Of a DNA stretch of 48,095 nt, positions 1 to 15,630 are shown piece after piece. Position 1 is the stretch's first letter, and each line of letters opens with the position of its first letter. Origin of the DNA: Bacteroides caecigallinarum (lineage in GTDB: Bacteria; Bacteroidota; Bacteroidia; Bacteroidales; Bacteroidaceae); assembly GCF_021530995.1 (NCBI RefSeq), contig NZ_JADYTF010000012.1, positions 1 through 48,095 on the forward strand. The letters run 5' to 3'. Position numbers and translations under genes: made by a program. The notes below the pieces were generated by a model that was not told where the DNA came from, did not search any database, and worked only from the letters and a program-made list of their open reading frames with translations.

Positions 1-7
1 ATAAACT

Positions 8-56
8 TATAAAAAATTATTACCGACAACAATATGCTGCCGGTAAATATTTTATT
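8..56. terminator. Possible terminator of an upstream gene
   Basis: An inverted repeat with TTACCG at 20-25 and CGGTAA at 41-46 is flanked by an A-rich stretch on the left and a T-rich stretch on the right. It could end a gene lying outside the window, on either strand. Confidence 0.4.
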
Positions 57-305
57 GCCTTTATTCATATGAATATACCAATGGAAGCCTTTGGAATCAT
101 TCTACCGTAAATCATTTTAGAGGAAAGGTAATGATAAAACCGGATATTCTGTTAAAATCACTCCATTGATTTGATTACTATGTGTTTGTATCACGATATT
201 TATCAAAATCTCCGGATTTCAAGATTACTATAGCCTAATGCGCATGATTCTGATACAGTTGTTCCCAGTTTTATACCCATATTCATTCACAAACATAACT
301 TTTTC
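57..305. other. Intergenic stretch with no gene seen
   Basis: No convincing gene lies between the possible terminator and the queuosine promoter. A 12-codon reading frame at 131-169 has a purine-rich stretch in front of it but is too short to support. No RNA gene was recognised. Confidence 0.4.
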
Positions 306-336
306 TTGCATATATCGTAAATACTCTGTACTTTTG
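306..336 (+). promoter_or_regulatory. Bacteroidetes-type promoter of the queuosine operon
   Basis: TTG at 306-308 and TACTTTTG at 329-336 match the -33 and -7 consensus (TTG and TAnnTTTG) with a 20-bp spacer. Transcription would start near 343 and give a leader of about 85 nt containing the riboswitch. Confidence 0.7.
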
Positions 337-391
337 CGCCCGAATTAAAAAAAGAAACAGAGATCATTAACATGCGATGCCGTGAATAGCG

Positions 392-428
392 GCCGTGTAT
401 TCTAGAACACCACGTAAAAAACAGGAAC
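392..428 (+). ncRNA. Probable preQ1-I riboswitch
   Basis: The sequence resembles the class I preQ1 aptamer. A short stem CGTG (394-397) and CACG (411-414) encloses a loop holding TTCTAG (400-405) and ACACC (407-411). An A-run (416-421) follows, and then AGGAA (423-427), which can pair with the loop as the pseudoknot. The tail holds the AGGAA in front of the ATG at 430, so ligand binding would hide the ribosome site and lower translation of the transporter. The queuosine-pathway context supports the call. The stem has only four clear pairs and no covariance search was run. Confidence 0.62.
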
Positions 429-429
429 G

Positions 430-1116
430 ATGAAAAAAGAAAATCTCGTATCAGTACCTTTCATGGTCTTGGGTATTGTGTTTTGTGTCTGCCTCGTGGC
501 AGCCAATCTTTTAGAGGCCAAAGTCGTACAATTCGGTCCGATTTCCGTAACTGCCGGACTGATAGTTTTTCCAATCTCTTACATTATCAATGACTGTATT
601 GCCGAAGTCTGGGGCTTCCGCAAGGCGCGTCTTATCATCTGGATGGGTTTCCTTATGAACTTCATGGTCGTAGCCCTCGGTAAAGTGGCAGTGGCTCTTC
701 CTGCGGCTCCTTTCTGGGAAGGCGAACAGGCATTCGATTTCGTGTTTGGTCTTGCTCCGCGTATCGCGGCTGCCAGCCTGACTGCTTTCCTTGTAGGCTC
801 GTTCATCAACGCTTTCGTTATGAGTAAGATGAAGATTGCTTCGCACGGTAAGAATTTCTCTGCCCGTGCCATTGTTTCAACTTTGGCCGGTGAGGGTGCA
901 GATTCAATCATTTTCTTCCCGTTGGCTTTCGGCGGACTGATGCCGGTGAACGAACTGCTGAAGATGATGGCGGTGCAGGTAGTCCTGAAAACGCTGTATG
1001 AAATCATCATTCTCCCTGTGACTATCAGGGTGGTGAACTACATCAAGCGTGTGGACGATTGTGATGTGTATGATGAGAATATCTCGTATAATGTACTGAA
1101 AATTAAGGAGATTTGA
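430..1116 (+). CDS. yhhQ: Queuosine precursor transporter, YhhQ/VUT_1 family
   Basis: This is a 228-residue polytopic membrane protein of the YhhQ (DUF165, VUT_1) family, which imports queuosine precursors such as preQ0 or preQ1 across the inner membrane. Hydrophobic segments run from about residue 10 to 30, 40 to 55, 65 to 95, 105 to 130 and 150 to 200. The family's polar stretch after [13 protein letters not shown] (about residues 49-61) is present. It is the first gene of the operon, follows the probable preQ1 riboswitch directly and ends just before queC, so its product would feed the same pathway. The length is normal for the family. The ATG start lies right behind the AGGAA of the riboswitch tail. 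The exact substrate cannot be told from sequence. Confidence 0.88.
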
Positions 1117-1118
1117 TT

Positions 1119-1802
1119 ATGACAATGAATAAGGAGGCCGCACTGGTAGTTTTCAGTGGCGGCCAGGATTCTACTACTTGCCTGTTCTGGGCAAAGAAAC
1201 ATTTCAAGGAAGTTTATGCGCTTAGTTTCATCTATGGTCAGAAACATGTGAAAGAGGTGGAACTGGCGAGAGGAATTGCCGAAAGGGCAGGGGTGCATTT
1301 TCACGCAATGGATGTATCGTTCATCGGTCATCTTGGCAAGAACTCTCTTACTGATACTTCAATAGTGATGGACGAGGAAAAACCGGAAGGCTCTTTCCCT
1401 AATACTTTCGTGCCGGGAAGAAATCTTTTCTTCCTCAGTATAGCTGCTGTTTATGCGCGCGAGCATGGCATCAGTCATCTGGTGACAGGAGTTTCGCAGA
1501 CTGACTTCAGCGGTTATCCCGACTGCAGGGATTCGTTTATCAAATCGCTCAACGTTACTCTTAATCTTGCTATGGACGAGCAGTTCGTTATTCACACTCC
1601 GCTGATGTGGATAGACAAGGCACAGACATGGGCTTTGGCTGACGAGCTTGGAGTGCTTGACCTGATAAGAAACGAAACTCTGACATGCTATAACGGGGTG
1701 CAGGGCGACGGATGCGGACATTGCCCGGCGTGTAAGTTACGTCGCGAGGGACTTGAAAAGTATTTGAGCTCGAAAAATAAATTATCTGCTTTTTATTACT
1801 GA
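1119..1802 (+). CDS. queC: 7-cyano-7-deazaguanine synthase QueC
   Basis: QueC makes preQ0 from 7-carboxy-7-deazaguanine, ammonia and ATP in the cytoplasm. The PP-loop ATP-binding motif SGGQDS is near residues 13-18. The C-terminal zinc site is visible as a cysteine followed by CGHCPAC. The ATG at 1119 was chosen because AAGGAG at 1105-1110 sits 8 nt before it. A TTG at 1113 would add two residues and overlap the previous stop, and is less likely. The gene begins 2 nt after the transporter stop, so the two are cotranscribed and probably translationally coupled. Length (227 residues) is normal for the family. Confidence 0.95.
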
Positions 1803-1823
1803 TTTCCGATAAAGAATGTTTAT

Positions 1824-1911
1824 CTCCACACGAACGTGATGAGATCTCCACACGGCCGTGTCGAGTTCTCCACACGAGCGTGTCGAGTGCTCCACACGAA
1901 CGTGTGGAGAT
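1824..1911. repeat. Four tandem 22-bp palindromic repeats
   Basis: Four head-to-tail units begin at 1824, 1846, 1868 and 1890. Each starts with CTCCACACG, then two variable bases, then an arm of the form CGTGTNGAG (CGTGATGAG in the first). The last unit is a near-perfect dyad with 9-bp arms around AA. The array lies between the queC stop and the queF start. It could form RNA hairpins in the operon transcript or be a dispersed REP-like element. The period is not a multiple of three and no gene runs through it. Confidence 0.92.
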
Positions 1912-1959
1912 AATTGTTTGCGGACATTATATCGTATAAAAGGAAAAATTATATATAAA

Positions 1960-2415
1960 ATGGAAAGAAAAGAAGAACTGACGCTGCTTGGCGGTAGCAC
2001 TGTATATCGTCAGGACTATGCTCCGGAGGTACTTGAGGCTTTTGCAAACAAGCATCCGGAGAATGATTATTGGGTACGTTTCAACTGCCCTGAGTTTACA
2101 AGTCTTTGTCCTATCACCGGACAGCCTGACTTTGCTGAAATCCGTATAAGCTATCTGCCTGACGTGAAGATGGTGGAAAGCAAGAGTCTGAAACTCTATC
2201 TGTTCAGTTTCAGAAATCACGGAGATTTTCATGAGGACTGTGTGAATATAATCATGAAGGACCTTATCAAACTGATGGACCCTAAGTATATCGAAGTTAC
2301 CGGTATATTCACTCCGCGCGGAGGTATATCTATTTATCCTTACTGCAACTACGGACGTCCGGGAACGAAGTATGAGGAACTGGCTGAGTACCGTATGCGC
2401 AATCACGATTTGTAA
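1960..2415 (+). CDS. queF: NADPH-dependent 7-cyano-7-deazaguanine reductase QueF
   Basis: QueF reduces the nitrile of preQ0 to the amine of preQ1, the base inserted into tRNA on the way to queuosine. The 151-residue length fits the short, unimodular type. The family motif SKSLKLY is at about residues 69-75. The active-site cysteine is in [11 protein letters not shown] (about residues 47-57), and the [11 protein letters not shown] stretch follows. The ATG at 1960 was chosen because the conserved sequence starts there; an upstream in-frame TTG would translate the repeat array. AGGAA at 1941-1945 is a weak and distant ribosome site. It is the last gene of the queuosine operon. Confidence 0.95.
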
Positions 2416-15436: not shown

Positions 15437-15535
15437 AAATGACTTGTTTTAAAATGTTAGTCAAAGCAAACACAAAGAGAATGTAAGAATTACAGTTTGA
15501 GAGAATATCTTATGACGGATGTCTTTTTTGAGGAC

Positions 15536-15614
15536 AATCCCTTCGTCGGTATTAACCGCATCAGGTTCATAGGGTATAATCTCAGCCCGGGTTTTATTCT
15601 TTGGGCACCCCTTT
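15536..15614 (-). ncRNA. TPP riboswitch (THI element)
   Basis: On the minus strand the aptamer shows the conserved GGGGTGCCC start, GGGCTGAGA, ACCC, then GAACCTGATGCGGTTAATACCG and the closing AAGGGA. It sits in the leader of thiS. Binding of thiamine pyrophosphate should switch the whole operon off. No clear terminator lies between the aptamer and thiS, so control may act on translation or on a structure not recognised here. Confidence 0.97.
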
Positions 15615-15630
15615 GTCTTTACTTCGGACG

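What the first reader, a model, noticed from the sequence alone, without database searches (positions are those of the whole stretch)
392..428. preQ1-I-like riboswitch whose tail is the ribosome site
The element has a TTCTAG loop, an ACACC segment, an A-run and an AGGAA tail directly before the transporter ATG. It would control precursor import by hiding the ribosome site. I would not have expected preQ1-I elements to be prominent in Bacteroidetes.
Basis: partly seen in the sequence, partly recalled or inferred. Interest (0 to 1): 0.5.

Follow-up and report, generated by a model that had tools for sequence, protein, structure and literature searches.

The report
preQ1 riboswitch before queuosine-precursor transporter gene
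A 34-base RNA switch that most likely senses the queuosine precursor preQ1 lies almost against the start codon of the precursor's importer in a gut Phocaeicola; the single copy is a known kind of switch, but relatives carry two or three copies joined end to end, which a 2022 survey lists as not found for this class.

Summary
The element is real and very probably a preQ1-I riboswitch with type II features, before a yhhQ-queC-queF operon. Rfam RF00522 misses it and passes its cut-off in 0 of 198 Bacteroidales genomes (strict filters). Comparison decides it: 135 of 137 testable loci, the closest yhhQ relatives found, carry it. P1 covaries (56/56 paired at four core pairs; U-A 31, A-U 22, G-C 3 at one), as does the loop-tail pseudoknot P2 (CUUG/CAAG, CCUG/CAGG, CUGG/CCAG). 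A model trained without the window's subtype finds 393-427 as the only good match in the window (E 7e-4). Another genome also has a copy before queC-queF.

"Hides the ribosome site" needs correcting: Bacteroidia ribosomes are reported not to read Shine-Dalgarno sequences, and 46 of 49 main-subtype tails lack GG. The fold would cover the A-rich start region instead. preQ1-I is already reported in Bacteroidota.

Unexpected: one genus of the same family carries two or three aptamers head to tail before yhhQ, mostly without spacer. A 2022 survey lists preQ1-I among classes not found in tandem. Binding and regulation are untested.

The parts
329..336 (+). Bacteroidetes-type -7 promoter box TANNTTTG (TACTTTTG)
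   Evidence: TANNTTTG lies within 130 nt upstream of P1 in 85 of 99 distinct leaders against 56 of 990 control windows; consensus from PMC6847099 (passage)
379..393 (+). 5' hairpin (GCCG/CGGC, loop TGAATAG; U383-G389 optional) ending exactly where P1 begins
   Evidence: by eye, (in fold and centroid): a stem of 5 bp or more ending within 2 nt of P1 in 47 of 99 distinct leaders against 52 of 1980 mononucleotide shuffles; many of the 47 are close relatives
394..397 (+). P1 5' strand CGUG
   Evidence: pairs with 411-414; orthologues CGAG/CUCG, GGGG/CCCC, AGAG/CUCU
398..398 (+). U that would contact the ligand (U6 of known aptamers)
   Evidence: U in 70 of 70 unique elements (U was part of the extraction rule, so this is partly circular)
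400..405 (+). P2 5' strand UUCUAG in the loop
   Evidence: pairs with 422-427 with one U-G and one A-A; variants in the subtype: Y-R position U-G 6, C-G 4, C-A 2, U-A 1
409..410 (+). AC before the P1 3' strand; C410 is the expected specificity base, A marks type II
   Evidence: AC in 70 of 70 unique elements (the C was part of the extraction rule, the A was not)
411..414 (+). P1 3' strand CACG
415..421 (+). A-rich L3 strand (UAAAAAA), positions -15 to -9 of yhhQ
   Evidence: A at -11 in 100%, -12 in 96%, -13 in 91% of 99 distinct leaders (an AAA was part of the extraction rule)
422..427 (+). P2 3' strand CAGGAA, positions -8 to -3 of yhhQ
   Evidence: covaries with the loop; the 4-base core ends 4 nt before the ATG in 68 of 99 leaders
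430..1116 (+). yhhQ-family queuosine precursor transporter
   Evidence: TIGR00697, 108.7 bits, cut-off 50.95
1119..1802 (+). queC, 7-cyano-7-deazaguanine synthase
   Evidence: TIGR00364, 260.7 bits, cut-off 150.3
1960..2415 (+). queF, preQ1 synthase (ORF listed from 1858; start at 1960 is my reading from the translation)
   Evidence: TIGR03139, 169.9 bits, cut-off 86.9

Best explanation
The element at 394-427 is a translational OFF riboswitch of the preQ1-I class with type II features. When preQ1 is plentiful it pairs with C410 between P1 (394-397/411-414) and the pseudoknot helix P2 (400-405/422-427), and the A-rich strand 415-421 packs against P1. The folded knot then occupies positions -36 to -3 of yhhQ, so the 30S subunit cannot load on the A-rich start region, and import (and probably the downstream queC-queF) falls. 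Without ligand the tail is open and A-rich, which is what Bacteroidia ribosomes use instead of a Shine-Dalgarno. Shown: the fold, by covariation; its position; the gene association. Inferred: the ligand, the direction of control, the SD-independent blocking, co-transcription of the three genes.
For: P1 paired in 56 of 56 sequences at the four core pairs, with U-A 31, A-U 22, G-C 3 at one pair and CG, AU, GC, GU, UG at another; covariation score 0.231 against 0.061 in shuffles, 0 of 500 as high. P2 fully paired in 52 of 57 main-subtype elements against a shuffle mean of 41.5 and maximum of 47 in 10,000. Model R1, trained without the window's subtype, finds 393-427 at 28.9 bits, E 6.9e-4, next best 9.4 bits, and nothing else in the genome at E<=10 (E there 0.054, 150 of 1735 first-look candidates scored). 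Type II hallmark AC in 70 of 70. RF00522 itself touches the orthologous site in Prevotella loci L135, L136, L129 at 25.3, 24.2, 21.6 bits, below its cut-off of 39 and not significant alone (E 0.68, 1.3, 5.9). Gene association: yhhQ-queC-queF and, separately, an element directly before queC-queF in G164 (queC 67%; queF 88%). No room for a terminator: the tail ends 2 nt before the ATG.
Against: RF00522 gives no match at E<=10 in 1-520. A fifth P1 pair is not supported: 42 of 56 unpaired. The window's P2 contains an A-A mismatch and a U-G pair; all 13 unique elements of its subtype have the A-A. Five of 57 main-subtype elements do not pair fully in P2. A nested-only fold of 370-432 is no more stable than shuffles (z -0.08) and prefers GUGU/ACAC over P1 (that register is not available in CGAG-type orthologues). 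No binding, expression or mapped-transcript data. Two of 137 testable yhhQ loci lack the element (L102, L108); a more distant yhhQ leader, L166, has no R1 match; and 9 of 9 Phocaeicola genomes examined with a divergent yhhQ (33-36% identity) have none in the roughly 100 nt fetched upstream.
Confidence: 0.86

Rival explanations
1. It is a preQ1-I-type pseudoknot whose physiological ligand is preQ0 (or both), matched to the transporter and to queC.
For: yhhQ of proteobacteria salvages preQ0 and preQ1, and type II Tte prefers preQ1 only about 17-fold (PMC10622847, passages). The operon contains queC, which makes preQ0.
Against: The predicted contacts (U398, C410) are shared by preQ1-I aptamers; nothing in the sequence points to preQ0.
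Confidence: 0.15
2. It works mainly on transcription, by ligand-dependent pausing or early termination, rather than on translation.
For: preQ1 riboswitches can induce transcriptional pausing (PMC11625349, abstract); the related B. subtilis aptamer acts by transcription termination (PMC3905878, passage).
Against: The knot ends 2 nt before the ATG, so no terminator fits between; the spacing to the ATG is kept (4 nt in 68 of 99 leaders), which transcription control does not need.
Confidence: 0.08
3. It is a conserved structured start region or protein-binding site that does not sense a metabolite.
For: No ligand data; unusual P2 in the window's subtype.
Against: The U, AC and A-tract match preQ1-I aptamers; all confirmed sites precede yhhQ or queC; sub-threshold RF00522 matches at the same site.
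Confidence: 0.04
4. Chance resemblance of a leader sequence to B. subtilis preQ1-I.
For: RF00522 finds nothing.
Against: Conservation with compensatory change in both helices across Bacteroidales.
Confidence: 0.01

Closest known systems
preQ1-I (class I) type II riboswitch, e.g. Thermoanaerobacter tengcongensis (Tte), Rfam RF00522
   Same: H-type pseudoknot, short P1, U at the loop start, AC before the P1 3' strand, A-rich L3, P2 between loop and tail, before a putative preQ1 transporter, translational position. Prevotella loci L135/L136 resemble Tte closely (Tte letters recalled, not from a call).
   Different: Below Rfam's cut-off; CAAG or CAGG tail in a phylum whose ribosomes are reported SD-blind; the window's subtype has a longer P2 with a fixed A-A; some relatives carry tandem copies.
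preQ1-I type II of B. subtilis (queCDEF)
   Same: Same class and fold; controls Q genes; loop UUCUAG resembles the window (Bsu letters recalled).
   Different: Bsu acts by transcription termination (PMC3905878, passage); here the knot abuts the ATG.
preQ1-I type III (E. coli yhhQ)
   Same: Controls yhhQ at translation; the A-rich strand and tail are part of the start region.
   Different: Type III is almost exclusively in Pseudomonadota, with a shorter pyrimidine-rich loop and an SD that contacts the ligand (PMC10622847, PMC11625349, passages).
preQ1-I type I
   Same: Same class.
   Different: Type I has UC before the P1 3' strand (PMC11625349, passage). Elements with UC, scoring below the Rfam cut-off, occur in other Bacteroidales (L261-L264, L266), so the order seems to hold two forms.

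Membership tests
preQ1-I riboswitch, type II | Score at or above Rfam RF00522 gathering cut-off (39 bits) | tested here: not met
   No match in window 1-520 at E<=10; best genome match 17.1 bits elsewhere (150 of 513 candidates scored); 0 of 198 Bacteroidales genomes over the cut-off (strict filters); so the cut-off fails for the lineage, not only for this copy.
preQ1-I riboswitch, type II | P1 stem supported by covariation | tested here: met
   56 of 56 paired at the four core pairs, three pair types at cols 4-20, five at cols 2-22; the fifth, outer pair is unpaired in 42 of 56.
preQ1-I riboswitch, type II | Loop-tail pseudoknot P2 (H-type) | tested here: met
   52 of 57 main-subtype elements fully paired; CUUG/CAAG, CCUG/CAGG, CUGG/CCAG, CUAG/CUAG. 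In the window's subtype (13 unique) one core position is always A-A.
preQ1-I riboswitch, type II | Specificity C preceded by A (AC) before the P1 3' strand | tested here: met
   A409-C410; 70 of 70 unique elements. Criterion from PMC11625349 (passage).
preQ1-I riboswitch, type II | U at the first loop position and A-rich L3 strand | tested here: met
   U398, A416-421; position table.
preQ1-I riboswitch, type II | Association with queuosine synthesis or transport genes | tested here: met
   (yhhQ, queC, queF); L172 before queC-queF.
preQ1-I riboswitch, type II | Binding of preQ1 | not testable with these tools
   Needs in-line probing, ITC or SHAPE.
preQ1-I riboswitch, type II | Translational control by covering a Shine-Dalgarno sequence (Tte-like) | tested here: not met
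   No GG in 46 of 49 unique main-subtype tails next to the ATG; Bacteroidia ribosomes are reported not to use SDs (PMC9976891, passages). The window's own tail does hold AGGA, 3 nt from the ATG. The position fits translational control by another route.

The most novel reading that the evidence does not exclude
Bacteroidales preQ1-I elements are a lineage of SD-independent translational riboswitches in which the aptamer's own A-rich strand is the ribosome's recognition region, and in one genus of the window's family they have been multiplied into arrays of two or three aptamers, mostly with no spacer, each P2 abutting the next P1. Such an array could fold as one continuous stack and give a steep, cooperative response to one ligand; it would be the first tandem form of preQ1-I.
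Probability: 0.5. Interest if true: 0.72.

Novelty: new variant of a known kind. Interest (0 to 1): 0.5.

Why it matters
It gives a testable case of riboswitch control of translation in a phylum whose ribosomes are reported to ignore Shine-Dalgarno sequences, so 'hide the SD' is unlikely to be the mechanism. The zero-spacer triplets offer a compact natural system for asking whether several minimal aptamers cooperate through stacking. In practice, pipelines that rely on RF00522 at its curated cut-off would miss preQ1-I in the Bacteroidales genomes sampled here.

Tried and rejected
Rfam as the deciding test: rejected, because the family cut-off is passed in none of 198 genomes of the order while the site is still touched below threshold in Prevotella loci. 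MAFFT on all subtypes together (A1) shifted the ATTC subtype by two columns; I used A2 (main subtype only, 56 sequences) for the model and counted P2 in a script. In A2 the tails of rows with longer or shorter linkers are out of register, so one search's P2 figure (82.6% of cells paired) is lower than one search's.

One search was a faulty extraction script (superseded). In one search two unique rows (L034/L092 copy 1, L113 copy 1) are spurious and were left out. The four loci of the L023 type were mis-registered by 3 nt; corrected by hand but not, so its hairpin count may be slightly low. L119 and L140 (loop insertions) were left out of A1 and A2. The queF protein was translated out of frame, so its 37% identity is wrong; one search gives 88%.

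Phylum search with R1: 3 of 395 genomes with a match at E<=0.01, but the strict filters missed the window's own genome, so it is not a test of absence. Order sample with R1: 7 of 41 at E<=0.1, again strict filters. Extra R1 sites in G671 and G666 show no match to the window's Q genes nearby and do not look like aptamers. Of the junction-pattern hits, L222, L223 and L243 are sites without a yhhQ match. Thermodynamic folding is uninformative for a pseudoknot.

A switch between the duplicated CCGTG at 380-384 and 393-397 was considered; many orthologues lack the upstream copy, so I dropped it.

Full report
WHAT IS THERE. The window is very probably a Phocaeicola contig: YhhQ is 99.6% identical in the named loci L068 (Candidatus Phocaeicola faecipullorum), L069 and L075 (Bacteroides caecigallinarum). 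At 430-1116 lies a TIGR00697 queuosine precursor transporter, followed by queC (from 1119) and queF. The missing piece is the stem: CGUG 394-397 with CACG 411-414. With it the element reads as an H-type pseudoknot: P1, a loop beginning with U398, a loop segment UUCUAG (400-405), AC (409-410), the P1 3' strand, UAAAAAA (415-421) and CAGGAA (422-427), then CG and the ATG.

THE RFAM TEST FAILS, AND WHY THAT IS NOT DECISIVE. RF00522 gives nothing in 1-520 at E up to 10 and does not list this site in the genome (150 of 513 candidates scored). Over 198 Bacteroidales genomes it passes its cut-off in none, while it does so in Bacillus subtilis (strict filters). At the orthologous site it scores 25.3, 24.2 and 21.6 bits in Prevotella loci L135, L136 and L129 (E 0.68, 1.3, 5.9, not significant alone). 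Among the 20 short leaders, only L163 has any RF00522 match (15.6 bits, E 9.1).

COMPARATIVE TEST. I took the region before yhhQ in 139 loci, the best-matching relatives returned; some genomes appear in both collections, and lower-scoring matches were mostly not fetched. Two (L016, L073) begin at a contig end. Of the other 137, 133 hold the element by script, two more (L044, L056) hold it with a longer linker, seen by eye, and two (L102, L108) do not. Two further leaders of yhhQ genes at 47-50% identity gave one weak R1 match (L167, E 0.034) and none (L166). In alignment A2 (56 unique main-subtype sequences, window subtype left out) the four core P1 pairs are standard in 56 of 56; one pair is U-A 31, A-U 22, G-C 3, another CG 46, AU 5, GC 3, GU 1, UG 1; a fifth outer pair is unpaired in 42. 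The covariation score is 0.231 against 0.061 in shuffles (0 of 500 as high), and slid controls fall to 0.002-0.095. P2, counted in register, is fully paired in 52 of 57 against a shuffle mean of 41.5 and maximum of 47 in 10,000. AC is present in 70 of 70 unique elements. Two elements carry a hairpin inserted in the loop (L119, L140).

INDEPENDENT DETECTION. A covariance model from A2 finds the window's element at 28.9 bits, E 6.9e-4, with the next best match at 9.4 bits. It is the only match listed in the genome at E up to 10 (E there 0.054; 150 of 1735 candidates scored).

LIGAND BY GENE CONTEXT. Besides yhhQ-queC-queF, genome G164 has one element before yhhQ and a second directly before queC-queF (L172; queC 67%, queF 88%). 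Nine of nine Phocaeicola genomes examined with a divergent yhhQ (33-36% identity) show no element in the roughly 100 nt fetched upstream: the R1 matches there (13 bits, 4 of 9) lie over the start of the coding sequence.

THE WINDOW'S SUBTYPE. Thirteen unique elements share the AUUC loop. In register with the main subtype, P2 has C-G, Y-R, A-A, G-C and two more potential pairs, UU with AA or AG. Y-R is U-G 6, C-G 4, C-A 2, U-A 1. So this subtype appears to have replaced one central pair by a mismatch and lengthened the helix.

HOW IT WOULD WORK. The 4-base tail core is followed by the ATG after 1-9 nt, 4 nt in 68 of 99 distinct leaders; A is present at -3 in 60%, -6 in 60%, -12 in 96% and -13 in 91%. 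Bacteroidia ribosomes are reported not to recognise SD sequences and to rely on A at -3, -6, -12, -13 and low structure; an added AGGA had virtually no effect in a reporter (PMC9976891, passages; PMC6847099, passages; work in Flavobacterium johnsoniae, not Phocaeicola; the former also reports strong SDs before a few ribosomal genes). I infer that the folded aptamer blocks initiation by covering this region, not by hiding an SD. The adenine frequencies cannot by themselves separate ribosome preference from the aptamer's own A-tract. No terminator fits between tail and ATG. In 10 leaders the promoter box TANNTTTG ends 5-9 nt before P1, so the mRNA there probably begins near the aptamer. In 47 of 99 leaders (52 of 1980 shuffles) a hairpin ends within 2 nt of P1, as at 379-393; many of the 47 are close relatives. 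A stacked helix at the foot of P1 is my guess at its role.

TANDEM ARRAYS. In seven named loci (L106, L110, L137, L139, L141, L144, L145), rumen or horse-gut by their record titles and isolate names (RUG read as rumen from recall), the leader holds two or three copies. R1 has matches at E<=1 in 27 of 41 genomes of the genus of L144, with two or more in 21; six of the seven loci are in that sample, L106's genome is not. Parsed arrays: 19 leaders, 13 with three copies and 6 with two (17 distinct array sequences by my count), of 82 leaders parsed out of 127; the P2 3' strand runs straight into the next P1 with no spacer in 18 of the 19, and 3 nt in L194. The parser undercounts: L196 shows a third, imperfect copy by eye, and L207 three copies with a 3-nt spacer after the first. 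The copies have their own P2 sequences (CCUG/CAGG first; CCAG/CCAG, CUAG/CCAG or CUUG/CAAG second; CUUG/CAAG last). The second copy's P2 often has only 2 of 4 standard pairs, so its folding is the weakest point. A junction pattern found 22 of 399 genomes of the family, 19 of them in one genus (g329; 33 listed genomes by my count) and three at sites without yhhQ; the reversed-pattern control rang twice. A 2022 survey lists PreQ1-I among classes not found in tandem (PMC9481103, Table 3, passages). Searches for 'tandem preQ1' (0 papers) and for preQ1, aptamers, in tandem, queuosine since 2022 (2 papers, listing only) gave no title reporting it; of 61 papers with preQ1, riboswitch and tandem (25 listed) I looked only into the few named here. 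The library holds open-licence papers only.

WHAT IS KNOWN. The 2024 review places type I preQ1-I in Bacteroidota and says type II is similarly distributed (PMC11625349, passages). The single copy in the window is therefore a member of a known class, missed by Rfam. What goes beyond that is the SD-independent setting and the arrays in relatives; the rating 'new variant' rests on those, not on the window copy alone.

Noticed in passing
L139:2406-2497, L141:2406-2497, L144:897-991 (three copies); L106:2436-2498, L110:2433-2496, L137:2429-2493, L145 from 2411 (two copies): Head-to-tail preQ1-I aptamer arrays before yhhQ, mostly without spacer, in gut and rumen Bacteroidales.
   Followed up: partly
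L172:1501-1536: A second element of the same family directly before queC-queF in a genome that also has one before yhhQ.
   Followed up: yes
L261, L262, L263, L264, L266 (match near 1501): Type-I-like preQ1-I elements (UC before the P1 3' strand, 23.5-27.1 bits, below the Rfam cut-off) in other Bacteroidales; further RF00522 matches in G141 and G245, not inspected, lie about 160-250 nt before a yhhQ match.
   Followed up: partly
window 15521-15622 (-): TPP riboswitch, 71.5 bits, the only Rfam match over a gathering score in the window.
   Followed up: no
window 1802-1960: Stretch between queC and queF with repeated or palindromic-looking sequence (similar peptides in several frames of the ORF list).
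   Followed up: no
L119:2443-2497 and L140:2084-2137: Aptamers with an extra hairpin inserted in the loop after the P2 5' strand.
   Followed up: no
window 371-393: CATGCGATGCCGTGAATAGCGGC is kept across many Phocaeicola and in L041 more strictly than a plain hairpin needs (listing).
   Followed up: no
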